20,314 nt of DNA from a virus. The translations under genes and the position numbers were made by a program. The notes beneath the pieces are model-generated. The model was not told the origin of the DNA. It made no database searches and was given only the letters and a program-made list of their open reading frames with translations. The stretch is from IMG/VR virus record IMGVR_UViG_3300027597_000053, positions 1-20,314 of that record; one strand, given 5' to 3'. Positions 1 to 20,245 of this stretch are shown here, piece after piece. Position 1 is the first letter of the stretch. Each line of letters starts with the position of its first letter.

Positions 1-510
1 ATCAGAATTAACAATAACTGAGTCATGGCCTTGTAGTAATGGGTATAAAAACTCATGCATTGAAATAGAAACATGTGATTCAAATCTTTTCTTAAAATCA
101 TCACGATCAAGCATTCGTGAAACAGTAATGGAAGATGAAAGTTTAATCATGTCGGCAGCAGTCATTTTAGACCACCAATCAGAATTAAACTTTACAATAG
201 TTTTATCTTTATCAAGGATGCGGAATATTTGACTTAAAAACTTTTCCGCATTCTCTTTTACTGTATGCTCTCTTAACTGAACTCTGGTGTTACTTTTACC
301 TGTAGGATCACCTATAGTAGCAGTAAAATCACCTATAATAATGATGACATTATGTCCTTCTAATTGAAAATCACGTAACTTTTTCAAAAGAACACAATGA
401 CCAAGATGTAAATGTGGTGATGTGGGGTCAAAACCAGCTTTTACATTTAATACTGGTTTATTAATTGGTGGTATAAAGTCAACTACACCACGGGTAAATA
501 ATTCTTTCAT
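1..510 (-). CDS. tyrS: Tyrosyl-tRNA synthetase, N-terminal 170 residues (3' end beyond window)
   Basis: Reading the minus strand from the ATG at 510-508 gives 170 codons open to the window edge. The protein shows the class I TyrRS hallmarks in order: GFDPT at residues 26-30, the HIGH-type motif HLGH at 35-38, then [15 protein letters not shown] around 59-73, a [11 protein letters not shown] stretch and [14 protein letters not shown] near the end. The style matches the bacterial type whose first motif reads KLGFDPT-x-DLHLGH. It would attach tyrosine to tRNA-Tyr. The KMSKS motif and anticodon-binding domain lie outside the window, so completeness cannot be judged. The gene has a weak Shine-Dalgarno (TTTGAG) and is transcribed divergently from gene 55, from a sigma70 promoter almost 300 bp upstream. 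No tRNA-Tyr was found in the tRNA array of this window. Family assignment is firm; phage-borne TyrRS is rare. Confidence 0.93.
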
Positions 511-5143: not shown

Positions 5144-5646
5144 ATATATTGAAAGATTTAACTGCGATGGTTGATGTCGCAGTTAATATGCTTGATAGCC
5201 GTATTATCAACGATAAGAGAAACGATGAAAAACCAACAGACGGAACACTTTTAACAAAAACTGTTGTCTTTAATCAGAGTGAGTATAAAATTTCTTTGGG
5301 TATTATTGACGAGCTTACTGCAATAAAAACATTTATAACAAAAGACATTAAAGAAGATATTAATTTGTATTCAATAACACCTATTACCGGATATTATGAA
5401 TCATCTTTTGATTATATGATTGAGGCAACTATTGAATATACAGTTGCTAAGAAAGAGTTTAAGGATGGAAACCTTGTTAAGCATGTGAAAAGCGGCGGCT
5501 TTTATCGTGTCCTTAGTAATAATGTTTTAAATGAAGCAGATAAAACAAAAATGGTAGTGTACCTTTCATTGCAAGATGGTGTTATATGGGTAAGACCATC
5601 GTCAGAGTTCAATGACGGAAGGTTTGTTTTGGCAATGAGCCTATAA
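5140..5646 (+). CDS. DUF1653-like C-terminal domain protein, 168 aa
   Basis: Translationally coupled to gp44 by ATGA. Residues about 118-168 (GGFYRVLSNNVLNEADKTKMVVYLSLQDGVIWVRPSSEF) follow the DUF1653 pattern: Y-x-V, then an acidic patch, VVY, and a W-VRP-F signature. The N-terminal two thirds is not recognised. DUF1653 is a small beta domain of unknown function found alone or fused in bacteria and phages. I first considered gp62 from position, but the sequence does not fit and a clear gp62 lies at 7644. It could modify or contact the replisome, but that is only context. Confidence 0.7.
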   Translation: MNILKDLTAMVDVAVNMLDSRIINDKRNDEKPTDGTLLTKTVVFNQSEYKISLGIIDELTAIKTFITKDIKEDINLYSITPITGYYESSFDYMIEATIEYTVAKKEFKDGNLVKHVKSGGFYRVLSNNVLNEADKTKMVVYLSLQDGVIWVRPSSEFNDGRFVLAMSL

Positions 5647-6543: not shown

Positions 6544-6828
6544 ATGCCATGTTATGATGCCGAATCGGCAATGGACAGAGAAGAAGAAAGAAAAAAGATT
6601 GCTGAATATGAAAAAATAAAATCTTTATTGTGTAGTACCTGTAGAATATTACAACAAAAAGGATATGACTTTGCACAAAACCCAGCATTACATGAATGGT
6701 GGTATGAACATCAAATTGAAGATAAGAAAAAAACCGAAGCGAAAATTATAAGTTCTATAAATCGTGAGCGTCAAGTACCATTAACAAATGAACAAATAAA
6801 ACTAATGAAAATATATGGAATAATATAA
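6544..6828 (+). CDS. Small CxxC protein starting MPCYD, 94 aa
   Basis: The protein begins MPCYDAESAMDREEERKK, has a CSTC pair near residues 30-33, and an HEWWYEHQ segment near 70. Small phage and bacterial proteins with an MPCYD opening and a charged helix followed by C-x2-C are familiar to me as an uncharacterised group; a metal-binding role is plausible but unproven. AGAGAG precedes the start. The stop TAA shares its last base with the start of the synthetase-like gene that follows. Confidence 0.75.
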   Translation: MPCYDAESAMDREEERKKIAEYEKIKSLLCSTCRILQQKGYDFAQNPALHEWWYEHQIEDKKKTEAKIISSINRERQVPLTNEQIKLMKIYGII

Positions 6829-7589
6829 TGCTACATTTGTATAATTATAATGGTCTGCCTTTTTACACTAACGACGATATTTCTTTACGAAATCATTTCA
6901 TTGCTACAATATCTGAAAAAATAAAAAATATACTTTGGGAGCAGAATAGAGCATGGGATTTTCATCAAATAGAATCATGTTCATTAATACCAACTGAATA
7001 CGTTAATAGTAATTATACAGAAGAGGATGTTTATTTTATTGGTGATTTAGCTTTGAAGCCTGAAACTACATCGGCAAGTTATTTTTATGCGGAGCATCTT
7101 TTCAATCAGCAACAAAAATTACCATTGTGTGTGTATCAAGCAAGTAAAAGTTTCCGTAAGGAACAAGACCAAGCGACTAAACATTGCCGATTCAAAGAGT
7201 TTTACCAATTAGAGTTTCAGTGCATTTATTCAGAAGATACAAAAAATGATTATCAACGTAATGTTATTGAAAAACTTGCTAACATGTTTAGTGAATTATT
7301 GACACTTCCAACTAGAATAGTTTTGTCTGATAGATTACCGTCATACTCTCTAAAAACAATAGACATTGAAGTTTTTAATAATGATAAGTGGATGGAAATA
7401 AGTAGTGTTTCGTTGCGAAATGACTTTAAGTACAAGCCTATAATGAAAAATAAAGAAATTAGGTGTTTAGTTTTAGAAATTGCAATTGGTCTTGACCGTT
7501 TGATTTATAATAATTCTTTAAAGAAAACAGTTAATAATATTTCGGTATCTAATTTATTGGAACAAGATATTGTCAACATTTCGCAATGA
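6828..7589 (+). CDS. Stand-alone class II aminoacyl-tRNA synthetase core, GlyRS-like
   Basis: The 253-residue protein has the class II synthetase signature in order. LALKPETTSASYF at residues 74-86 resembles the LRPETAQ segment of GlyRS. Residues 99-131 contain SFRKE, then RFKEFYQLEFQ, which is motif 2 with the GlyRS-like (R/K)EF-x-Q-x-E pattern. KWMEISSVSLRNDF at 187-200 matches the GWGE...R-D segment, and LEIAIGLDRLIY at 216-227 is motif 3 with its Arg at 224. GlyRS, ThrRS and ProRS normally carry a C-terminal anticodon-binding domain of about 100 residues; here nothing follows motif 3 except 26 residues. It may glycylate a tRNA by acceptor-end recognition, or act on another substrate. Three tRNA-Gly genes lie downstream. 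Class II fold: confident. Glycine specificity: inference. Confidence 0.75.
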   Translation: MLHLYNYNGLPFYTNDDISLRNHFIATISEKIKNILWEQNRAWDFHQIESCSLIPTEYVNSNYTEEDVYFIGDLALKPETTSASYFYAEHLFNQQQKLPLCVYQASKSFRKEQDQATKHCRFKEFYQLEFQCIYSEDTKNDYQRNVIEKLANMFSELLTLPTRIVLSDRLPSYSLKTIDIEVFNNDKWMEISSVSLRNDFKYKPIMKNKEIRCLVLEIAIGLDRLIYNNSLKKTVNNISVSNLLEQDIVNISQ

Positions 7590-7622: not shown

Positions 7623-7643
7623 ACCACACACATGGAGAAAAGT

Positions 7644-8048
7644 ATGGCAGAAATGGGATTTATAGAGGCATTGAACTCTATTAACAGTCGTGAAAAAATA
7701 AACATTATACGTGAATCAGATAGTCCAGAAGCCGCAGAAAAACAATACCCACCTTTTCCAGTTTTACGCTCATTATCATATAGCCTTGATAGCGTCCTCT
7801 TCATCAATGAATTGAACATTAGAGGTCTGTCTCAATTTAATGTAAGTAACTTGATGCATTATGAGTTTTTACTTTATCTTATACCGCCTGCGAAACGTTT
7901 TAATAAATGGGTCAAGGTTGAAAAGAATGAAACAATTGAAAATATTATCAAGTATTACAATGTGAGTTTTGATAAGGCTAGAGATATATATGATATTTTG
8001 ACCGAAGAACAACGAAAAGAATTAGATAAGATTTACGAAAAGAAATAA
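7644..8048 (+). CDS. 62: Clamp loader small subunit gp62
   Basis: The 134-residue product matches short gp62 proteins of cyanophage-type T4 relatives: EKQYPPFPVLRSLSYSLDSVLFINELN in the first half, then MHYEFLLYLIPPAKRFNKWVK, comparable to T4 gp62 [20 protein letters not shown]. T4 gp62 is 187 residues, so this is the short form. It completes the gp44-gp62 clamp loader. ATG 7644 has GGAG at 7634-7637; an ATG at 7632 would overlap that site. Instead of being coupled to gp44 it has its own promoter and lies 32 bp before gp43. Confidence 0.88.
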   Translation: MAEMGFIEALNSINSREKINIIRESDSPEAAEKQYPPFPVLRSLSYSLDSVLFINELNIRGLSQFNVSNLMHYEFLLYLIPPAKRFNKWVKVEKNETIENIIKYYNVSFDKARDIYDILTEEQRKELDKIYEKK

Positions 8049-8080: not shown

Positions 8081-10732
8081 ATGGCAAAATACTACAAAAA
8101 CTTTTATGTACACAAAAATAATGTTTTAGTTAGAGAGTATGACAACGGCATAGAAAACCGCTACAAAAGACGCATCGAACCGTCTTACTATTTTGAGACT
8201 GACAAAGAGTCTGAATACAAAACATTGCTTGGCAAATCATTAATTAAGATGGATTTTACATCACAATACGACGCAAAGCAATGGTTCGATACATACGAAA
8301 CAATGAAGCATAAAATATTCGGGTTTCCCCATTATGAATATATCATGATGAATGAAATGTATCCCGGCGACCTTTCAAGAGTTTTCAATACTGAACATCT
8401 AGTTGTTGGTAATGTCGATATTGAAACGGAAACCGAATATGGGTTTCCTGATATTGAAAAGGCTAATGAAAAGATAAGTTTGATATCATTGTCTTTAAAT
8501 GGAAATGGTCATAAAGGCGAAATATATTGTTTTGGTTACAAAGATGCTGTAATTAATGATAAAGATGCCAAGTTTATAAAATGTTTGGATGAAAAAGACT
8601 TACTGAAAAAATTTATACAACTTTGGGTTTCTAGTAATATAGATTATATTACAGGATGGAACATTGAAGGATTCGACTTGCCGTATTTGGTTAATCGCAT
8701 AGAGTTAGTTTTGGGTGAAGATTTTGTCAAAATGCTTTCGCCTTGGAAAATTGTAACTAAGAGAAATGCCAAAAATGGTTTTGGTAAAGATACTATAAAG
8801 GTAGAGATAGCTGGAATTAATATATTTGATTATCTTGAACTATATAAAAAGTTTTCGGGAAATCAGGCAGAGTCTTACAAGCTTGATTATATTGCAAACT
8901 TGGAATTAGGTGACAAAAAAGTTGAATATGATTGTTCTTTCAAAGATTTTTATACTAATCATTGGCAAACATTTGTCGAGTATAACATCCATGACGTTCG
9001 TTTGGTACGTAAACTTGATGAAAAGCTTGGTTTCATTTCGTTGGGATGTACGCTTGCTTACAAGGCAAAAATACTACCGTTTGATATATTCACCACTATT
9101 CGTATTTGGGATGTTATCATTACTAATGCGTTGAGTTCAAGAAAAATAATGGTTCCAACCTTTATCAGTGGTGATTCAGCAACATATGGTGGTGGCTATG
9201 TTAAAGACCCGTTATCTGGGTATTACGAATGGTTGTTGTCTATTGACGCCACATCTCTTTATCCGAGCATTGAACGTACATTTAACATTTCGATGGAAAC
9301 TATTTTGAATCCAACGACGTTTATACCATTGGAACCAAACGATATTATTTTCAATACCGAAAAGTATCAAAAAGCCCGTGAGTTGGCACATAGCCTGAAC
9401 GCATGTTTGACCGCTAATGGTGCAATGTTCAAGAAAGACAAACAAGGTATTATCCCTGAGCTAAACGAGTTTTACTTCAATCAGCGTAAGGCTGAAAAGA
9501 GCTTAGGTAAAGATTATGAAAAGGCGGCGGCACATATAGAAAAAGTATTTGTTAATCGTGGAGTAAAGGTTGATGAAATTGTTCGTGATAACACTACAAC
9601 TTTCCAGTTGTATAAACATGATCAATTAACCGAAATGACTAATGAACAGTTGAAGTATTTGATGGAAAATTATTCAGCAAAAGCGATTATACAGAAAAAT
9701 ATTGAACAGGCTATTAAGATTCTTATCAATTCTTTGTATGGTTATCTTGGCTCTGGATACTCTAGATTCTATAACAAATATATGGCAGAAGCAATTACAT
9801 TAACAGGTCAAGCACTTATTCAAAAATCTGCGCAGTTTATTAATGATGACCTTAATAAAATAACTGGTGTGGAAAAAGATCGTATTGTTGGTATAGATAC
9901 AGATTCTAACTATATTGATCTTACTGATGTTGTTTATTCTCCAAAAACAAATTGGTATAAAAAGTCAAAGGATGAAATCACAACACTTTTAGATAAGTTT
10001 TGTGATTCAAGATTGGAAAAAACTATAGAAAAGGGTTTTGACGATCTTATCATGGGGGAAATGAATGGTTTTGAGCAGTGTATTTTCATGAAACGTGAAG
10101 CAATTGGTGCCGGAGTATTTGTTCAAAAGAAACGTTATACAATGTATGTTTACGATAATGAAAAAGTTCGTTATTCTAAACCAAAATTGAAAATTACTGG
10201 TCTTGAGGCAATTCGATCAACAACACCAAAATATTTCCGTGAAAAGATGAAAAAGATTTATGAAATGATGTATACCTCAACACAGGAAGACATTTATAAA
10301 GAAGTTGAGGGTATTCGTAAAGAATACTTTGAAATGGATATTTCATTAATAGGGAAACCAACGGGGGTTAATGATTTGGAAAAGCATGAAAATGGTTCCA
10401 AAGAGCTTGGCAATTTCGCCAAAGGCGCACCCGGCCACGTTAAAGCGGCAATGACATATAATCGTTTGATAAAATATTTTGCAATTGATCACACATACAA
10501 GAATATTGTGTCCGGTGATAAAATAAAGCTTTATGAGGTTAGAGTACCAAATCCATATAAGAACGACAAAATAGCAATAGTAGACAAATTACCACCTGAG
10601 TTTGAGCTTGATAAATATGTGGATCGTGAAACTATGTTCCATGACTATTTTATTAAACCAGTTAGTGCGGTTCTTGCAATCCGTAATTGGTATGCGGAAG
10701 AACCTGTAAATCTAGATGGTTTGTTTGTTTAA
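8081..10732 (+). CDS. 43: Family B DNA polymerase gp43
   Basis: The 883-residue product (T4 gp43: 898) has complete motifs. The proofreading exonuclease has D113 and E115 (VDIETE), NIEGFD with D199, and YNIHD with D305. The polymerase has motif A IDATSLYPS with D389, motif B KILINSLYG ending at 554, and motif C GIDTDS with D606 and D608. All expected catalytic acids are present. The C-terminus ends NLDGLFV, a short hydrophobic-acidic tail of the kind that docks on the gp45 clamp. It is transcribed with gp62. The TAGGGGCAAAGGG stretch before ATG 8081 contains the likely ribosome-binding site. No RegA gene lies between 62 and 43, unlike T4. Confidence 0.97.
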   Translation: MAKYYKNFYVHKNNVLVREYDNGIENRYKRRIEPSYYFETDKESEYKTLLGKSLIKMDFTSQYDAKQWFDTYETMKHKIFGFPHYEYIMMNEMYPGDLSRVFNTEHLVVGNVDIETETEYGFPDIEKANEKISLISLSLNGNGHKGEIYCFGYKDAVINDKDAKFIKCLDEKDLLKKFIQLWVSSNIDYITGWNIEGFDLPYLVNRIELVLGEDFVKMLSPWKIVTKRNAKNGFGKDTIKVEIAGINIFDYLELYKKFSGNQAESYKLDYIANLELGDKKVEYDCSFKDFYTNHWQTFVEYNIHDVRLVRKLDEKLGFISLGCTLAYKAKILPFDIFTTIRIWDVIITNALSSRKIMVPTFISGDSATYGGGYVKDPLSGYYEWLLSIDATSLYPSIERTFNISMETILNPTTFIPLEPNDIIFNTEKYQKARELAHSLNACLTANGAMFKKDKQGIIPELNEFYFNQRKAEKSLGKDYEKAAAHIEKVFVNRGVKVDEIVRDNTTTFQLYKHDQLTEMTNEQLKYLMENYSAKAIIQKNIEQAIKILINSLYGYLGSGYSRFYNKYMAEAITLTGQALIQKSAQFINDDLNKITGVEKDRIVGIDTDSNYIDLTDVVYSPKTNWYKKSKDEITTLLDKFCDSRLEKTIEKGFDDLIMGEMNGFEQCIFMKREAIGAGVFVQKKRYTMYVYDNEKVRYSKPKLKITGLEAIRSTTPKYFREKMKKIYEMMYTSTQEDIYKEVEGIRKEYFEMDISLIGKPTGVNDLEKHENGSKELGNFAKGAPGHVKAAMTYNRLIKYFAIDHTYKNIVSGDKIKLYEVRVPNPYKNDKIAIVDKLPPEFELDKYVDRETMFHDYFIKPVSAVLAIRNWYAEEPVNLDGLFV

Positions 10733-10761
10733 AAAATTTACATAATTAGGAAAAATATATA

Positions 10762-11415
10762 ATGAGCGCAGAATGGTTAACATTTAAATTTGAAACACTT
10801 AACGACACCCCTTGGAATGCTACTGTTTTATCCGTAGCATTCGTTGGCGGGAAATGGTCTGACCTTGGTGTTAATGCTGATGTTGAAAAACTTTTAAAAA
10901 ATGGTGAAGAATACTTTTTTACCGTTAAAAATCAAAAAGAAACATATGGCAGGGTTTCTTCATCAGATACTATAGAATGGTGGAAGAAACAGCCAATAGA
11001 GGCCCAAAATAAGGTTTTCAAGCCTGAAAGTAAGATAGACCTTTCTCAACTACCATACGTCTTTAATGACTATTGTGAAAAGATTGGCCTTAATGACAAA
11101 ACGATGATAATGCTTAATGGAACAATATTTCATGCAACGCTTATGCAATCGCTGTATAAGACATTTAATGAAAAGATGCCGTATGAGTTTTGGAATATAC
11201 GTGATATACGAACCGCTCTTGATATCATATCGGGATCAACTAAATTATACGGCATAGACCAATATTGTAAAGAAAAATATCAATTGAACCGTTATGACGC
11301 ACTACATGAGTGTATTAAAAACATGCTACAGGTTTCTTTTGTATTATGTGAAACTGGTAAAGATATTAAGAAAGACTATGAGAATTATGGCATAAGCTTG
11401 TATACGAAATGGTAA
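10762..11415 (+). CDS. DexA-like 3'-5' exonuclease family protein with degenerate active site
   Basis: The 217-residue protein keeps the scaffold of the DexA / Rv2179c-like RNase H-fold exonucleases: FETL at residues 10-13, DTIEWWKKQP at 69-78, NG-x2-F near 119-123, FWNIRDIRTALD at 143-154. T4 DexA is 227 residues. The DEDDh catalytic residues are mostly changed: the DxE motif reads K9-F-E11, the second motif Asp is H124 (NGTIFHA instead of NGxxFD), and the last motif, normally HxAxxDA, reads Y178-D-A-L-H-E183-C. It is therefore likely non-catalytic, perhaps retained for DNA binding or replisome contact. It follows gp43 by 29 bp with the site TAGGAAA. Confidence 0.8.
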   Translation: MSAEWLTFKFETLNDTPWNATVLSVAFVGGKWSDLGVNADVEKLLKNGEEYFFTVKNQKETYGRVSSSDTIEWWKKQPIEAQNKVFKPESKIDLSQLPYVFNDYCEKIGLNDKTMIMLNGTIFHATLMQSLYKTFNEKMPYEFWNIRDIRTALDIISGSTKLYGIDQYCKEKYQLNRYDALHECIKNMLQVSFVLCETGKDIKKDYENYGISLYTKW

Positions 11416-17527: not shown

Positions 17528-17598
17528 GCGGGGTTAGTTTAGCGGTAAAATAGGTGGTTGCCATCCATCAGACGGGAGTTCAATTCTCCCACCCCGCA
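17528..17598 (+). tRNA. tRNA-Gly(GCC), discriminator A, encoded 3' end CCG
   Basis: Acceptor GCGGGGT/ACCCCGC (7 bp), D arm GTTT...AAAT, anticodon stem GGTGG/CCATC, loop TTGCCAT with anticodon GCC at 17560-17562, 4-nt variable loop, T arm GGGAG/CTCCC with TTCAATT. Base 73 is A, unlike the U73 of ordinary bacterial tRNA-Gly. It is followed by CCG, so CCA must be made after transcription. First gene of the array. Confidence 0.9.
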
Positions 17599-17614
17599 CC
17601 GAGTTTTATGTGAT

Positions 17615-17691
17615 GGTGTTGTTAGCTCAATCGGTAGAGTCCATGATTGTGAGTCATGTGGGTGTCGGTTCAAATCCGACACAACACCCCA
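17615..17691 (+). tRNA. tRNA-His(GTG), with G-1:C73 and encoded CCA
   Basis: G-1 at 17615 pairs with C73; acceptor GTGTTGT/ACAACAC; anticodon stem CATGA/TCATG, loop TTGTGAG; T arm with TTCAAAT; CCA encoded. All histidine identity elements are present, in contrast with the second GTG tRNA at 18114. Confidence 0.93.
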
Positions 17692-17714
17692 AACACAAAA
17701 TTACAGTTGTCTTG

Positions 17715-17742
17715 TTGACAAAGTTGAATGATGTGTTATAAT
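17715..17742 (+). promoter_or_regulatory. Sigma70-type promoter inside the tRNA array (before tRNA-Cys)
   Basis: TTGACA 17715-17720, 16-bp spacer, TATAAT 17737-17742, eight bases before tRNA-Cys. Start would fall at about the tRNA 5' end. Confidence 0.8.
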
Positions 17743-17749
17743 ATGTTAT

Positions 17750-17823
17750 GTCTTGTTGGCCGAGTGGCGAGGCGAACGGCTGCAACCCGTTCCACAGGGG
17801 TTCAAATCCTCTACAAGACTCCA
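17750..17823 (+). tRNA. tRNA-Cys(GCA)
   Basis: Acceptor GTCTTGT/ACAAGAC, D arm GCC...GGC, anticodon stem AACGG/CCGTT, loop CTGCAAC, T arm AGGGG/CCTCT, discriminator T as expected for Cys, CCA encoded. Regular cloverleaf; it is the intact counterpart of the truncated copy at 19292. Confidence 0.95.
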
Positions 17824-17844
17824 ACACAATAATAGGAGACACTA

Positions 17845-18030
17845 ATGCGTATAGTCGTTACTATAAGAGAGTTGATGGATTATGGTGTCTGGGATGACTA
17901 TTGTGAAAAAGTTGGTTGGGATGTATGGTGTGTAAAAAATGGCCGTGCAGATTCCTCCGAAGAAGTTTCACTTGATAAAGAAACAGCTATGCAATATGGT
18001 TTTATTGAAAGACCATGTTATTATAGATAA
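17845..18030 (+). CDS. Small hypothetical protein, 61 aa, within tRNA array
   Basis: ATG 17845 with AGGAGA upstream, 21 bp after tRNA-Cys. The peptide is Trp-rich (YGVWDDYCEKVGWDVWCVKNG) and ends ETAMQYGFIERPCYYR. It resembles small acidic phage ORFs in tone only; no domain is recognised. Its frame and ribosome-binding site make it a likely real gene, transcribed with the tRNAs from the promoter at 17715. Confidence 0.7.
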   Translation: MRIVVTIRELMDYGVWDDYCEKVGWDVWCVKNGRADSSEEVSLDKETAMQYGFIERPCYYR

Positions 18031-18039
18031 AGAGATGAT

Positions 18040-18111
18040 GCGGTAGTAGTTTAATGGCAAAATGGTTGATTTCCGATCCATCAGTTGTGGGTTCGATTCC
18101 CACTTACCGCT
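18040..18111 (+). tRNA. tRNA-Gly(TCC), copy 1, CCG end, abutting next tRNA
   Basis: Acceptor GCGGTAG/TTACCGC, D arm as in tRNA-Gly(GCC), anticodon loop TTTCCGA with TCC, T arm GTGGG/CCCAC, discriminator T. The anticodon stem GTTGA/TCCAT has a T-C mismatch at its third pair. CC at 18112-18113 is followed at once by the G-1 of the next tRNA. It looks like a diverged duplicate of tRNA-Gly(GCC). Confidence 0.8.
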
Positions 18112-18113
18112 CC

Positions 18114-18188
18114 GGTGACGTTATTCTAATCGGTTAAGAACCTTGATTGTGAGTCAAGTTTATGTCAGTTCGAGGCTGACACGTCACA
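18114..18188 (+). tRNA. tRNA with His anticodon (GTG) but A73, CCG end
   Basis: Acceptor GTGACGT/ACGTCAC, three-pair D stem, anticodon stem CTTGA/TCAAG with loop TTGTGAG identical to the canonical tRNA-His, T arm GTCAG/CTGAC. Base 73 is A, so the G-1:C73 pair that marks tRNA-His for HisRS is absent. Followed by CCG. Charging identity uncertain. Confidence 0.8.
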
Positions 18189-18199
18189 CCGAAAACATG

Positions 18200-18228
18200 T
18201 TGACAACCATGAAAAAATGTAGTAAAAT
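18200..18228 (+). promoter_or_regulatory. Sigma70-type promoter inside the tRNA array (before tRNA-Ala)
   Basis: TTGACA 18200-18205, 17-bp spacer, TAAAAT 18223-18228, ten bases before tRNA-Ala copy 1. A second re-initiation point within the array. Confidence 0.75.
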
Positions 18229-18238
18229 GTTTCAAATT

Positions 18239-18312
18239 GGGGTTTTAGTATAATGGGATTATAGCTGCCTTGCACGCAGTTGATTGGGGTTCGATCCCCC
18301 AAAGCTCCACCA
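18239..18312 (+). tRNA. tRNA-Ala(TGC), copy 1
   Basis: Acceptor GGGGTTT/AAGCTCC with the G3-T70 wobble pair that specifies alanine, anticodon stem GCTGC/GCAGT, loop CTTGCAC, T arm TGGGG/CCCCA, A73 and CCA encoded. Confidence 0.93.
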
Positions 18313-18321
18313 AAATAAAAG

Positions 18322-18395
18322 GCGGGTATGGTATATTGTCTGTGCCTCGGTCTTCCAAACCGAAGAGATGGGTTAGATTCCCATTACCCGCTCCA
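18322..18395 (+). tRNA. tRNA-Gly(TCC), copy 2
   Basis: Acceptor GCGGGTA/TACCCGC, anticodon stem TCGGT/ACCGA with loop CTTCCAA, T arm ATGGG/CCCAT with loop TTAGATT (unusual A at the third loop base), T73 and CCA encoded. The canonical tRNA-Gly(TCC) of the array. Confidence 0.92.
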
Positions 18396-18460
18396 AAGAA
18401 TTGAGGTTATGCCTCTGTGGCGGTAGGAGAATCCCCACGTAAAAAACTTAAACTCCTTGA

Positions 18461-18535
18461 GGGTATGTGGTAAAGAGGGATTACACGGTGCCGAAAGGTT
18501 CCGGGTCGTTGGTTCGATTCCAACCATACCCACCA
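18461..18535 (+). tRNA. Irregular tRNA, 8-nt anticodon loop (possible GAA/Phe)
   Basis: Acceptor GGGTATG/CATACCC, D stem GTAA/TTAC, T arm GTTGG/CCAAC with TTCGATT, A73 and CCA are all sound. The anticodon arm is not: no 7-nt loop with T33 can be drawn. The best fold pairs CGG/CCG and leaves an 8-nt loop CCGAAAGG after a T-T mismatch and G-T pair. The central GAA would be Phe. It is either a decayed tRNA or an expanded-loop tRNA. The 65 bp before it (18396-18460) hold two weak hairpins (GAGG/CCTC, GTGG/CCAC) and no gene I can name. Confidence 0.6.
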
Positions 18536-18543
18536 TTTATTTT

Positions 18544-18619
18544 GGGGCTAGGCGCTGCTAGGAGTGGCGACCGCACTTGCAATGCGGCTATCAGGTGGGT
18601 TCGATGCCCACTAGCTCCA
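18544..18619 (+). tRNA. tRNA-Ala(TGC), copy 2, CCG end
   Basis: Acceptor GGGGCTA/TAGCTCC with G3-T70, D stem CGCT/GGCG, anticodon stem CCGCA/TGCGG, loop CTTGCAA, 7-nt variable loop, T arm GTGGG/CCCAC, A73. CC is followed by the first G of the next tRNA. Confidence 0.9.
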
Positions 18620-18621
18620 CC

Positions 18622-18693
18622 GATTGTTGTGGTAAAGTGGTAATATGCCCGGTTGGCCGCTGGGAGGCGATGGTTCGATTCCATCCAACAATC
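18622..18693 (+). tRNA. Irregular tRNA, anticodon GGC, G-1:C73 acceptor pair, CCG end
   Basis: Acceptor ATTGTTG/CAACAAT extended by a G at 18622 opposite C73, a feature normally found only in tRNA-His. Anticodon stem CCCGG/CTGGG, loop TTGGCCG gives GGC (Ala codons) but with C at position 37. The alanine pair G3-T70 is absent. T arm GATGG/CCATC is sound. Amino-acid identity cannot be assigned. Confidence 0.6.
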
Positions 18694-18706
18694 CCGATTT
18701 TGGCGC

Positions 18707-18730
18707 TGGTATACCGCATTGTGTATACCA
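18707..18730 (+). repeat. 8-bp hairpin between tRNAs
   Basis: TGGTATAC and GTATACCA with an 8-nt loop, in the 40-bp gap between two tRNAs. No T-run. Possibly a processing signal in the tRNA precursor. Confidence 0.6.
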
Positions 18731-18734
18731 CTTT

Positions 18735-18807
18735 GGGGCTATAGTTCAGTTGATAGAACGTCGCACTTGCAATGCGAAGGTCGTCGGTTTGAGTCCGACT
18801 AGCTCCA
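18735..18807 (+). tRNA. tRNA-Ala(TGC), copy 3, CCG end
   Basis: Acceptor GGGGCTA/TAGCTCC with G3-T70, anticodon stem TCGCA/TGCGA, loop CTTGCAA, T arm GTCGG/CCGAC, A73. CC at 18808-18809 is followed by GGAG, the ribosome-binding site of the next small ORF. Confidence 0.92.
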
Positions 18808-18819
18808 CCGGAGTTAATT

Positions 18820-18981
18820 ATGCAAATATATATTTCGAAAAATTTGGTTGAAAAGGAAATAAACTCTTTTTTGGAAAGCTTTAAAAAGTTTGAAAATTTT
18901 AATGAAAGGCGTGACGAACAACTTCAAGAAATGAAAAAAGAGTTTGACAAATTGAAAAAACAAGTTAATGTGGGTCTATAG
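18820..18981 (+). CDS. 53-aa coiled-coil-like peptide wedged between tRNAs
   Basis: ATG 18820 has GGAG at 18810-18813, directly abutting the CC of tRNA-Ala copy 3. The frame runs 53 codons, MQIYISKNLVEKEINSF at the start, then a charged, likely alpha-helical or coiled-coil half, NERRDEQLQEMKKEFDKLKKQV. Its stop TAG (18979-18981) lies ten bases inside the next tRNA. Processing of that tRNA would remove the stop codon from the message. Function unknown. Confidence 0.6.
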   Translation: MQIYISKNLVEKEINSFLESFKKFENFNERRDEQLQEMKKEFDKLKKQVNVGL

Positions 18982-19059
18982 TTTAATTGGAAAAACACCG
19001 GCCTCCAAATCCGGGGACAGAAGATGCAAGTGGGAGTTCGAATCTCTCTAGACCTGCCA
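18972..19059 (+). tRNA. tRNA-Trp(CCA), copy 1, with 17-nt variable region
   Basis: Acceptor GGGTCTA/TAGACCT (G-T first pair), D stem GTTT/AAAC, anticodon stem CCGGC/TCCGG with inner C-T mismatch, loop CTCCAAA, T arm GGGAG/CTCTC, G73 as in bacterial tRNA-Trp, CCA encoded. The variable region is 17 nt instead of 5, with no clear stem. Confidence 0.85.
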
Positions 19060-19065
19060 GTTTTT

Positions 19066-19141
19066 AGGTTGTTAGTATAACGGTTATTATTCTGGCCTCC
19101 AAAGCCATGAGATTGCGGTTCGAATCCGTAGCGACCTGCCA
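19066..19141 (+). tRNA. tRNA-Trp(CCA), copy 2
   Basis: Acceptor AGGTTGT/GCGACCT, anticodon stem CTGGC/GCCAT with an outer C-T mismatch, loop CTCCAAA, 5-nt variable loop, T arm TGCGG/CCGTA, G73, CCA encoded. Confidence 0.9.
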
Positions 19142-19172
19142 AATGCTGATATAACATTTTAAGTATATTAAT

Positions 19173-19243
19173 AGAGAATTGGTGTAAGCGCACACGCTCC
19201 GGGCCTAATGGAGTGGGTTGAGGTTCAAGTCCTTGGTTCTCTG
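19173..19243 (+). tRNA. Irregular tRNA, possible Arg(CCT), G33, no GG in D loop, CCG end
   Basis: Acceptor AGAGAAT/GTTCTCT and T arm with TTCAAGT are sound; G73. The D stem GTGT/ACAC closes a 6-nt loop AAGCGC that lacks the usual GG. Anticodon stem CTCCG/TGGAG with loop GGCCTAA gives CCT but with G in place of T33. Followed by CCG. Probably decayed or structurally unusual. Confidence 0.55.
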
Positions 19244-19258
19244 CCGTTGCTAATGGTG

Positions 19259-19279
19259 TATCATAGTTAAAATATGATA
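19259..19279 (+). repeat. 7-bp hairpin upstream of truncated tRNA-Cys
   Basis: TATCATA and TATGATA with 7-nt loop GTTAAAA. No T-run; possible precursor processing hairpin. Confidence 0.5.
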
Positions 19280-19291
19280 TTCCTCCAATAC

Positions 19292-19347
19292 GTGTGGACT
19301 GAATGGTTGAGGCAGCGGTCTGCAAAACCGCTTTATGTGGGTTCGAG
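19292..19347 (+). pseudogene. 5' three quarters of a tRNA-Cys(GCA), cut in the T loop
   Basis: Anticodon stem GCGGT/ACCGC with loop CTGCAAA (GCA), a TTTAT variable loop, T stem GTGGG and TTCGAG follow one another, then the sequence changes to A/T-rich DNA leading to the HNH gene. The rest of the T loop, the T-stem 3' strand and the acceptor 3' strand are absent here and not found downstream. The exact 5' end is uncertain because the pairing partner is missing. Confidence 0.8.
19336..19347 (+). repeat. 12-bp direct repeat, left copy (tRNA T arm)
   Basis: TGTGGGTTCGAG here and at 20171-20182. The left copy ends exactly where tRNA-Cys is broken; the right copy is in the intact tRNA-Leu. The pair brackets the HNH gene, consistent with recombination between T arms. 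Confidence 0.75.
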
Positions 19348-19375
19348 ATTAATAAATAGTTCATGGAGATTAAAC

Positions 19376-20245
19376 ATGAACTATAAAAACATATACAATG
19401 ATATTATTGAAAAAAGAAAAGAAAACATACCAACAGGTTATACCGAAGAACATCATATAATACCTCGTTGTTTAGGTGGTACAGATGATAAAGATAATTT
19501 AGTTAAATTAACGGCTAAAGAACATTTTATCTGTCATTTGTTATTAACAAAAATGTATGAATATGGAACAATTGAATATTACAAAATGTGCAATGCTTTT
19601 TTGATGATGCTTGTTACTAGTAAAGATCATCAAAATAATAGATATATTACTTCTAGAAAATATGAAAAATTAAAAGTTTCATTTTCTGAAAGAATGTCAA
19701 CTTTACAAAGTGGTAAAAATAATTCTCAACATGGTACGATGTGGATTTATAATAAAGAATTACAACAATGTAAAAAAGTACCAAAAGATAGTGAATTAGA
19801 ATCTGGTTGGTATAAAGGAAGGGTTTTAAATTGGAATAAACAAATTAAAATAAAACCACCAAAATTAAAAAAGGAAAAATTATTATTTGAAAACATTTGC
19901 GATATATGTGGTAATATTTTTTCAACAATAGATAAAAATAGAATAATTTGTTCTGTTTTGTGTACACAGAAAAATGCTAGTAAAAAAGCATCTATAAAAA
20001 ATACAAAAAAAGTTATAGATGATAATGGTATTGTTTATAATAGCATGAAAGAGGCAGGAGAAAAATTAAATGTAACCCCTGAATGTATCTATTATAGAAT
20101 ACAAAGAGGAATTTACAAATATGCGAAAGTAGACCAACGGTTAGAGTCAAATGCCTTAGAAGCATTGTGTTGTGGGTTCGAGTCCCACCTTTCGCACCAG
20201 AAAGTTAGTATAATGAAGAGATATAGAGGACTCGTGAACGGGTAA
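19376..20245 (+). CDS. HNH homing endonuclease, C-terminus reading through tRNA-Leu
   Basis: ATG 19376 with GGAG at 19365-19368. Residues 25-55 hold the HNH core (EHHIIPRCLGG, then NL, KEHFICH). A WIYN...GWYKGR segment (123-149) typical of mobile HNH proteins follows, then a zinc-ribbon-like C175-x2-C178...C192-x3-C196, and a NUMOD-like DNA-binding helix VYNSMKEAGEKLNVTPECIYYRI (220-242). Such enzymes cut intron- or gene-free sites to spread their own gene. Codon 250 begins exactly at the first base of the tRNA-Leu gene, so the last 40 residues are tRNA sequence and beyond. The gene is more AT-rich than its neighbours, and sits directly behind a broken tRNA-Cys, both signs of recent transfer. 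Confidence 0.88.
   Translation: MNYKNIYNDIIEKRKENIPTGYTEEHHIIPRCLGGTDDKDNLVKLTAKEHFICHLLLTKMYEYGTIEYYKMCNAFLMMLVTSKDHQNNRYITSRKYEKLKVSFSERMSTLQSGKNNSQHGTMWIYNKELQQCKKVPKDSELESGWYKGRVLNWNKQIKIKPPKLKKEKLLFENICDICGNIFSTIDKNRIICSVLCTQKNASKKASIKNTKKVIDDNGIVYNSMKEAGEKLNVTPECIYYRIQRGIYKYAKVDQRLESNALEALCCGFESHLSHQKVSIMKRYRGLVNG
20123..20199 (+). tRNA. tRNA with anticodon TAG (Leu), short variable loop
   Basis: Acceptor GCGAAAG/CTTTCGC, D stem GAC/GTC, anticodon stem AATGC/GCATT, loop CTTAGAA with TAG, 5-nt variable loop, T arm GTGGG/CCCAC, A73 and CCA encoded. It reads CUA/CUN Leu codons by anticodon, but bacterial tRNA-Leu has a long variable arm, absent here. It lies entirely inside the HNH reading frame. 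Confidence 0.85.
20171..20182 (+). repeat. 12-bp direct repeat, right copy
   Basis: Second copy of TGTGGGTTCGAG, inside the T arm of tRNA-Leu(TAG). Confidence 0.75.

What the first reader, a model, noticed from the sequence alone, without database searches (positions are those of the whole stretch)
6828..7589. Minimal GlyRS-like synthetase core encoded inside a phage replication operon
The 253-aa protein shows class II motifs 2 and 3 in GlyRS style but no anticodon-binding domain. It is co-transcribed with gp45/gp44, not with the tRNAs. Phage-encoded synthetases are rare, and a bare catalytic core is rarer. It could recognise tRNA by the acceptor end only, charge the phage A73 tRNA-Gly, or use another acceptor (as the class II-derived ligases HisZ, PoxA/EpmA and BirA do).
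Basis: partly seen in the sequence, partly recalled or inferred. Interest (0 to 1): 0.8.

Follow-up and report, generated by a model that had tools for sequence, protein, structure and literature searches.

The report
Bare-core glycyl-tRNA synthetase of jumbo phages
A large phage carries a working-looking but stripped-down version of the enzyme that attaches glycine to tRNA, without the part that reads the anticodon; the same stripped-down enzyme occurs in many giant phages and in the chromosomes of nearly half of Rhizobium species, and what it attaches glycine to is unknown.

Summary
Window 6828-7589 encodes 253 aa that fold with high confidence (pLDDT 92) as a class II synthetase core; the best sequence and structure matches are alpha2-type glycyl-tRNA synthetases, and there is no anticodon-binding domain. 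It is not a truncated one-off: about 160 relatives, nearly all 220-270 aa, occur in jumbo phages and on chromosomes of Rhizobium (37 of 80 genomes), Devosia, Phenylobacterium and Paraburkholderia. The ATP residues and the three glutamates plus alanine that select glycine in M. tuberculosis GlyRS are (nearly) invariant, and bacterial copies are under purifying selection. Glycine activation is likely; the acceptor is open. The replication-operon context is peculiar to this phage: elsewhere the gene sits with other synthetases, tRNA-repair enzymes and tRNA genes, and this phage also encodes TyrRS. The A73 idea fails: nearly all tRNA-Gly of synthetase-bearing phages have U73. I favour acceptor-end charging of tRNA-Gly. 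In one phage clade and a few others the neighbour is a lone tRNA with a CUA (amber) anticodon, and the window's phage has such a tRNA elsewhere; a dedicated pair is not excluded but is not general to the family.

The parts
6828..7589 (+). 253-aa bare-core GlyRS-like class II synthetase
6957..6992 (+). motif 1 region, residues 44-55; conserved P51 is C51 here, P55 kept
7056..7070 (+). residues 77-81 KPETT; E79 aligns with Glu165 of M. tuberculosis GlyRS (holds the glycine amino group)
   Evidence: PMC12208437
7149..7220 (+). motif 2, residues 108-131 SFRKEQDQATKHCRFKEFYQLEFQ; R110, E112, F125, Q127, E129 align with Mtb Arg197, Glu199, Phe212, Gln214, Glu216
   Evidence: PMC12208437
7329..7349 (+). 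residues 168-174 DRLPSYS, counterpart of the GlyRS lid motif [AS]HY[AS]; Tyr kept, His lost, Pro171 invariant
   Evidence: PMC12208437
7389..7427 (+). residues 188-200 WMEISSVSLRNDF; E190 aligns with Mtb Glu284 (ribose and metal)
   Evidence: PMC12208437
7470..7505 (+). motif 3, residues 215-226 VLEIAIGLDRLI; E217 and A219 correspond to Mtb Glu324 and Ala326, R224 to Arg331
   Evidence: aligned there to N. equitans VLELSFGVDR; PMC12208437
7536..7586 (+). C-terminal tail, residues 237-253, low confidence; no anticodon-binding domain
6544..6828 (+). upstream ORF, 94 aa (phrog_34941); its stop overlaps the synthetase start
7632..8048 (+). downstream clamp loader A subunit (gp62-like)
1..510 (-). 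5' part of a tyrosyl-tRNA synthetase gene running off the window (358 aa in the 99.87% identical 46.8-kb contig)
17528..17600 (+). tRNA-Gly(GCC), discriminator A73
18040..18113 (+). tRNA-Gly(UCC), discriminator U73
18322..18395 (+). tRNA-Gly(UCC), discriminator U73

Best explanation
The gene encodes a stand-alone catalytic domain of alpha2-type GlyRS that lacks the insertion and anticodon-binding domains. Inferred mechanism: (1) it binds ATP and glycine in a GlyRS-like pocket and makes glycyl-adenylate (about 0.85); (2) it passes glycine to the 3' end of a tRNA (about 0.6); (3) the usual substrate is tRNA-Gly, of phage or host, recognised through the acceptor end only, which works with any glycine anticodon and adds charging capacity during infection (about 0.5). 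Shown here by computation: fold, homology, conservation of active-site residues, absence of the anticodon domain, purifying selection on the chromosomal copies. Not shown: any activity, the amino acid, the acceptor.
For: Fold. Homology to GlyRS first. In 161 relatives R110, E112, R121, F125, Q127, E129, Q131, D179, E190, R197, D199, E217, G221 and R224 are invariant, E79 is in 160 and A219 in 159. By alignment these include the counterparts of the glycine-selecting Glu165, Glu216, Glu324 and Ala326 and of the ATP residues of M. tuberculosis GlyRS (PMC12208437, read). Bacterial copies show dN/dS well below 1, for example 0.05/0.38 and 0.12/1.39. Neighbourhoods are rich in tRNA functions: CysRS in 7 lineages (80% identity clusters), T4-type RNA ligase in 8, Thg1 in 3, PTH2 in 3, TyrRS, an AlaRS core; tRNA-Gly lies nearest on one side in several (L010, L041, L047, L057, L007). 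All synthetase-bearing phage genomes or large contigs scanned encode at least one tRNA-Gly.
Against: tRNA-Gly is the commonest tRNA in these loci anyway (31 of 232), and related phages without the synthetase have the same tRNA-Gly genes (Colossus, Gurke), so the tRNA set does not track the gene. All 14 host genomes tested already have normal GlyQ, and bacterial copies have no tRNA within 5 kb. The lid motif has lost its histidine and Glu218 is Gln. The protein is acidic (net charge -5), and no tRNA-binding extension remains.
Confidence: 0.5

Rival explanations
1. The core activates glycine but transfers it to something other than a tRNA 3' end (a protein side chain, a carrier protein, a modified base or a small molecule), as amino acid:carrier protein ligases, EpmA and GluQ-RS do after losing the anticodon domain.
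For: Loss of all tRNA-binding parts is the pattern of these paralogues (PMC9437257). Bacterial copies stand alone, with no tRNA and no translation gene conserved nearby, next to a complete GlyQ in the genome, and are dispensable: present in 37 of 80 Rhizobium genomes, some copies broken.
Against: No carrier protein or other conserved partner gene next to it. Phage neighbourhoods are rich in tRNA enzymes. Sequence is closest to GlyRS, not to SerRS or its relatives.
Confidence: 0.27
2. In at least one clade the partner is a dedicated tRNA with CUA anticodon: an orthogonal synthetase-tRNA pair that decodes or suppresses UAG, made possible because the core cannot read anticodons.
For: A tRNA-CUA lies 0.05-1.7 kb upstream of the synthetase in eight related jumbo-phage loci (L019, L020, L021, L023, L025, L027, L030, L031), 0.3 kb upstream in Phosso (62 tRNAs, nearest other tRNA over 55 kb away) and within 3 kb in L050 and L080. 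The synthetase-linked tRNAs of the clade and of Phosso have G73. The window's phage carries a tRNA-CUA (46.8-kb contig, 5501-5576) and so does XbC2. TAG stops are scarce in these phages: 0 of 18 window genes, 1.5% in XbC2, 8% in Phosso, against 15-31% in phages where no CUA tRNA was found.
Against: CcrSC and Domovoi have the synthetase but no tRNA-CUA; 14 host genomes gave no hit to the strict CUA pattern. tRNA-CUA is common in phages without the synthetase: only 4 of 22 strict-pattern records have it, and G73 versions occur there too. In the window phage, XbC2 and most others the two genes are far apart. The TAG comparison is confounded by GC content. An apparent giant gene with in-frame TAG in Phosso was an antisense artefact.
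Confidence: 0.13
3. A catalytically dead paralogue used as a structural or regulatory subunit, for example a replication accessory protein like mitochondrial POLG2 or a HisZ-like regulator, given its place between clamp-loader genes.
For: Location between gp44 and gp62/gp43 in the window.
Against: Catalytic and glycine-pocket residues are invariant or nearly so across 161 relatives; the replication neighbourhood is not seen in relatives.
Confidence: 0.04

Closest known systems
alpha2-type glycyl-tRNA synthetase (bacterial/archaeal; TIGR00389, NF003211; PDB 8u2q, 8slg, 5z5e, 1ati)
   Same: Class II core, motif 2 and 3 residues, the three glycine-binding glutamates, the specificity alanine of bacterial enzymes, best sequence and fold matches
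   Different: 225-250 aa instead of about 450-690; [quoted passage not shown] lid [AS]HY[AS] is P-x-Y-[SA]; Glu218 equivalent is Gln; scores far below the family cut-offs
Pyrrolysyl-tRNA synthetase without N-terminal domain (delta-PylSn type)
   Same: Similar size, class II core without a classical anticodon domain; some relatives of our protein lie beside a CUA tRNA
   Different: Weaker sequence match (E about 1e-5 to 1e-3); pocket residues are those of GlyRS, not of PylRS; no Pyl biosynthesis genes seen
Amino acid:carrier protein ligases (SerRS-like, Bradyrhizobium/Agrobacterium)
   Same: Class II core without tRNA-binding domain, activates small amino acids, occurs in rhizobia (own knowledge and PMC9437257)
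   Different: SerRS-derived and works with a carrier protein; ours is GlyRS-like and no carrier-protein gene is conserved nearby
GluQ-RS (YadB) and EpmA/PoxA
   Same: Stand-alone synthetase catalytic domains with new acceptors
   Different: Class I GluRS-like and class IIb LysRS-like respectively; different amino acids

Membership tests
alpha2-type GlyRS | Class II catalytic fold with motifs 1-3 | tested here: met
   AlphaFold2 pLDDT 92, Foldseek GlyRS E about 1e-13; motif 2 and 3 arginines invariant; the motif 1 proline is Cys in this copy
alpha2-type GlyRS | Glycine pocket: three glutamates (Mtb Glu165, Glu216, Glu324) and Ala326/Ser | tested here: met
   E79, E129, E217, A219 (PMC12208437)
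alpha2-type GlyRS | Lid motif [AS]HY[AS] | tested here: not met
   PSYS in the window; Pro171 in 161 of 161, Tyr173 in 161 of 161, position 172 mostly A, S or D
alpha2-type GlyRS | C-terminal HGTP anticodon-binding domain | tested here: not met
   No Pfam match; chain ends after the motif 3 helix; nearly all relatives 220-270 aa
alpha2-type GlyRS | Score above NCBIfam equivalog cut-off | tested here: not met
   49 bits against 312
alpha2-type GlyRS | Charges tRNA-Gly with glycine | not testable with these tools
   needs an in vitro assay
Amino acid:carrier protein ligase | Carrier-protein gene next to the ligase | tested here: not met
   none among window neighbours nor conserved at bacterial or viral loci
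Amino acid:carrier protein ligase | SerRS-like catalytic core | tested here: not met
   GlyRS scores best, SerRS much weaker
Orthogonal amber pair (PylRS/tRNA-Pyl-like) | tRNA-CUA encoded with the synthetase | tested here: inconclusive
   adjacent in one clade plus Phosso, L050 and L080; absent in CcrSC and Domovoi; common without the synthetase
Orthogonal amber pair (PylRS/tRNA-Pyl-like) | In-frame UAG codons read as sense | tested here: inconclusive
   no long TAG read-through in window contig or XbC2; Phosso candidate was an artefact; TAG rare as stop
HisZ / POLG2-type inactive paralogue | Loss of catalytic residues | tested here: not met
   catalytic residues invariant in 161 relatives

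The most novel reading that the evidence does not exclude
A phage family of anticodon-blind glycyl synthetase cores that, in at least one clade of jumbo phages, works as a dedicated pair with a G73 tRNA-CUA and places glycine (or another small residue) at UAG: an orthogonal class II pair besides PylRS.
Probability: 0.12. Interest if true: 0.85.

Novelty: new variant of a known kind. Interest (0 to 1): 0.55.

Why it matters
A natural, conserved synthetase core of about 230 residues tests directly how much of GlyRS is needed to charge tRNA, a question argued so far mostly from engineered fragments. The family is widespread in giant phages, was apparently taken over by rhizobial chromosomes, and is annotated only as hypothetical, serine-tRNA synthetase or 'aminoacyl--tRNA ligase-related'; I found no paper on it. 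If the acceptor is a special tRNA it is a ready-made orthogonal pair; if it is not a tRNA, a new glycylation reaction waits to be found.

Tried and rejected
(1) Giant gene with in-frame TAG in Phosso: antisense shadow of a 13.7-kb virion gene. (2) tRNA-CUA as general partner: absent in CcrSC and Domovoi, common without the synthetase. (3) The first CUA pattern had one base too many and missed its positive controls; corrected; a loose pattern was swamped by chance hits in bacterial genomes. (4) A73 tRNA-Gly link: U73 in relatives. (5) Replication-operon link: not seen in relatives. (6) Conserved bacterial neighbour genes: only lineage synteny. (7) tRNA sets of related phages with and without the gene (CcrSC, Domovoi against Colossus, Gurke) show no difference tied to it. 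(8) Literature searches for a described bare-core phage GlyRS found none. (9) I first read A219 as a departure from the GlyRS serine; the M. tuberculosis structures show that alanine is the state there.

Full report
OBSERVATION. The ORF 6828-7589 exists as stated: 253 aa, ATG to TGA. It starts on the last base of the upstream stop (TAATG) and is followed after 42 bases by a clamp-loader A subunit gene. Pfam recognises tRNA-synt_2b (E=1e-13, above cut-off); NCBIfam ranks glycine--tRNA ligase first, HisRS second. Profile searches against PDB sequences put GlyRS clearly first: 1.5e-17 for mycobacterial GlyRS, then N. equitans and T. thermophilus GlyRS, with SerRS, PylRS, ProRS and HisRS many orders weaker. 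AlphaFold2 with 55 sequences gives pLDDT 92, pTM 0.87 and the antiparallel class II core. Foldseek against the PDB returns GlyRS first (E about 1e-13); in the viral structure library the best hit is a 222-aa phage protein of the same kind.

FAMILY. Nineteen records of 50,697 in the phage collection have a full-length relative, all genomes of 311-636 kb: Xanthomonas XbC2, Sinorhizobium Phosso, Caulobacter Bertelyvirus, Brevundimonas phages and two metagenomic huge phages. IMG/VR gave 80 loci of 86 confirmed, bacterial genomes 80 of 82. ORF lengths are nearly all about 220-270 aa, apart from fragments and over-extended starts, so the bare core is the family state. The tree places the Rhizobium, Phenylobacterium and Devosia copies as one clade inside viral diversity with viral sisters (100/99), and the window with XbC2, L010 and a Paraburkholderia copy (98/99). 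The root is not known, so virus-to-host transfer is the simplest reading, not a proof. In Rhizobium 37 of 80 genomes have it, some copies broken, and intact copies show strong purifying selection. All 14 host genomes tested have normal GlyQ.

ACTIVE SITE. Across 161 relatives the motif residues are invariant. Mapping onto M. tuberculosis GlyRS: in the alignment to chain 8t5n_A the motif 2 arginine counts as residue 210 of the crystal construct and is Arg197 in the paper, so the offset is 13, and the same offset reproduces Glu165, Glu199, Phe212, Gln214, Glu216 and Glu284. This gives E79=Glu165, R110=Arg197, E112=Glu199, F125=Phe212, Q127=Gln214, E129=Glu216, E190=Glu284. For motif 3 the alignment to N. 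equitans (VLELSFGVDR) places E217, A219 and R224 at the positions that I equate with Glu324, Ala326 and Arg331. According to PMC12208437 the three glutamates hold the glycine amino group, and Glu324 with Ala326 blocks larger side chains. Departures are Q131 for Glu218 (N. equitans GlyRS also has Gln there) and P-x-Y-S for the lid [AS]HY[AS]. Glycine is therefore the likely substrate; this is inference.

CONTEXT. The replication operon is particular to this phage: tblastn of the window's replication proteins against the relatives' loci does not find the gp45/44/62/43 set around the synthetase; single partial matches to a polymerase (L029), a clamp loader (L067) or gp47 (L063, L077) occur. Instead, recurrent neighbours are CysRS, T4-type RNA ligase, a protein with P-loop kinase and phosphoesterase domains, Thg1, PTH2, TyrRS, ATP-grasp proteins and, in L007, a 248-aa AlaRS core. 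The window's own phage encodes TyrRS: its 5' half is window 1-510 on the minus strand, and the complete gene in the 99.87% identical 46.8-kb contig passes the equivalog cut-off.

WHICH ACCEPTOR. tRNA-Gly is nearest on one side in several arrays, but it is also the commonest tRNA. A lone tRNA-CUA lies close upstream in one clade of eight loci and in Phosso, and within 3 kb in L050 and L080. The contig of the window's phage and XbC2 have a tRNA-CUA elsewhere. TAG is rare as a stop in those phages, though GC content confounds this. Against a general pair: CcrSC and Domovoi have none, and many tRNA-CUA phages lack the synthetase. Related phages without the synthetase have the same tRNA-Gly genes. 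I therefore keep tRNA-Gly by the acceptor end as the leading idea at 0.5, a non-tRNA acceptor at 0.27 and the amber pair at 0.13.

KNOWN OR NEW. Huge phages are known to carry tRNA synthetases and many tRNAs (PMC7162821), jumbo phages suppressor tRNAs (PMC13037316), and catalytic-domain-only paralogues with new acceptors are an established theme (PMC9437257). The XbC2 paper mentions a tRNA synthetase/ligase without further study (PMC11273794). I found no description of an anticodon-domain-less GlyRS family in phages or rhizobia; most subscription journals are outside the library searched. Verdict: new variant of a known kind, moderately interesting, with a small chance of something larger.

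Noticed in passing
window 1-510 (-): 5' part of a tyrosyl-tRNA synthetase gene; complete (358 aa, above TIGR00234 cut-off) in the near-identical contig IMGVR_UViG_3300027123_000194.
   Followed up: yes
L179:5501-5576 (-) (contig of the window's phage, about 20.8 kb left of the window): tRNA with CUA (amber) anticodon, A73; none of 18 window genes ends in TAG.
   Followed up: partly
L003:7594-7669; L019-L031 loci; L050; L080: Lone tRNA-CUA close to the minimal synthetase in jumbo phages; G73 in Phosso and the L019-L031 clade. Many other jumbo phages carry one to four tRNA-CUA genes, often in tandem with different discriminator bases.
   Followed up: partly
L007:8887-9633: 248-aa stand-alone AlaRS-like core (tRNA-synt_2c) beside the GlyRS core and a Thg1 gene (10181-11020): another bare-core class II synthetase in a huge phage.
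   Followed up: partly
L089-L168: Chromosomal homologues in Rhizobium (37 of 80 genomes), Devosia, Phenylobacterium, Paraburkholderia; stand-alone, no conserved neighbours.
   Followed up: yes
window 18461-18535: tRNA-like gene with a four-base anticodon call (GAAA, eight-base loop), left undetermined by ARAGORN.
   Followed up: no
window 17528-20199: tRNA cluster with repeated isotypes (Gly x3, Ala x4, His x2, Trp x2) and, by eye, an HNH-type homing endonuclease ORF (19274-20245) within it.
   Followed up: no
BFVD A0A141HRQ2, A0A292GIB7, A0A2I7SAH4: Unnamed viral proteins of 185-217 aa whose predicted folds match the class II core: possible further bare cores.
   Followed up: no
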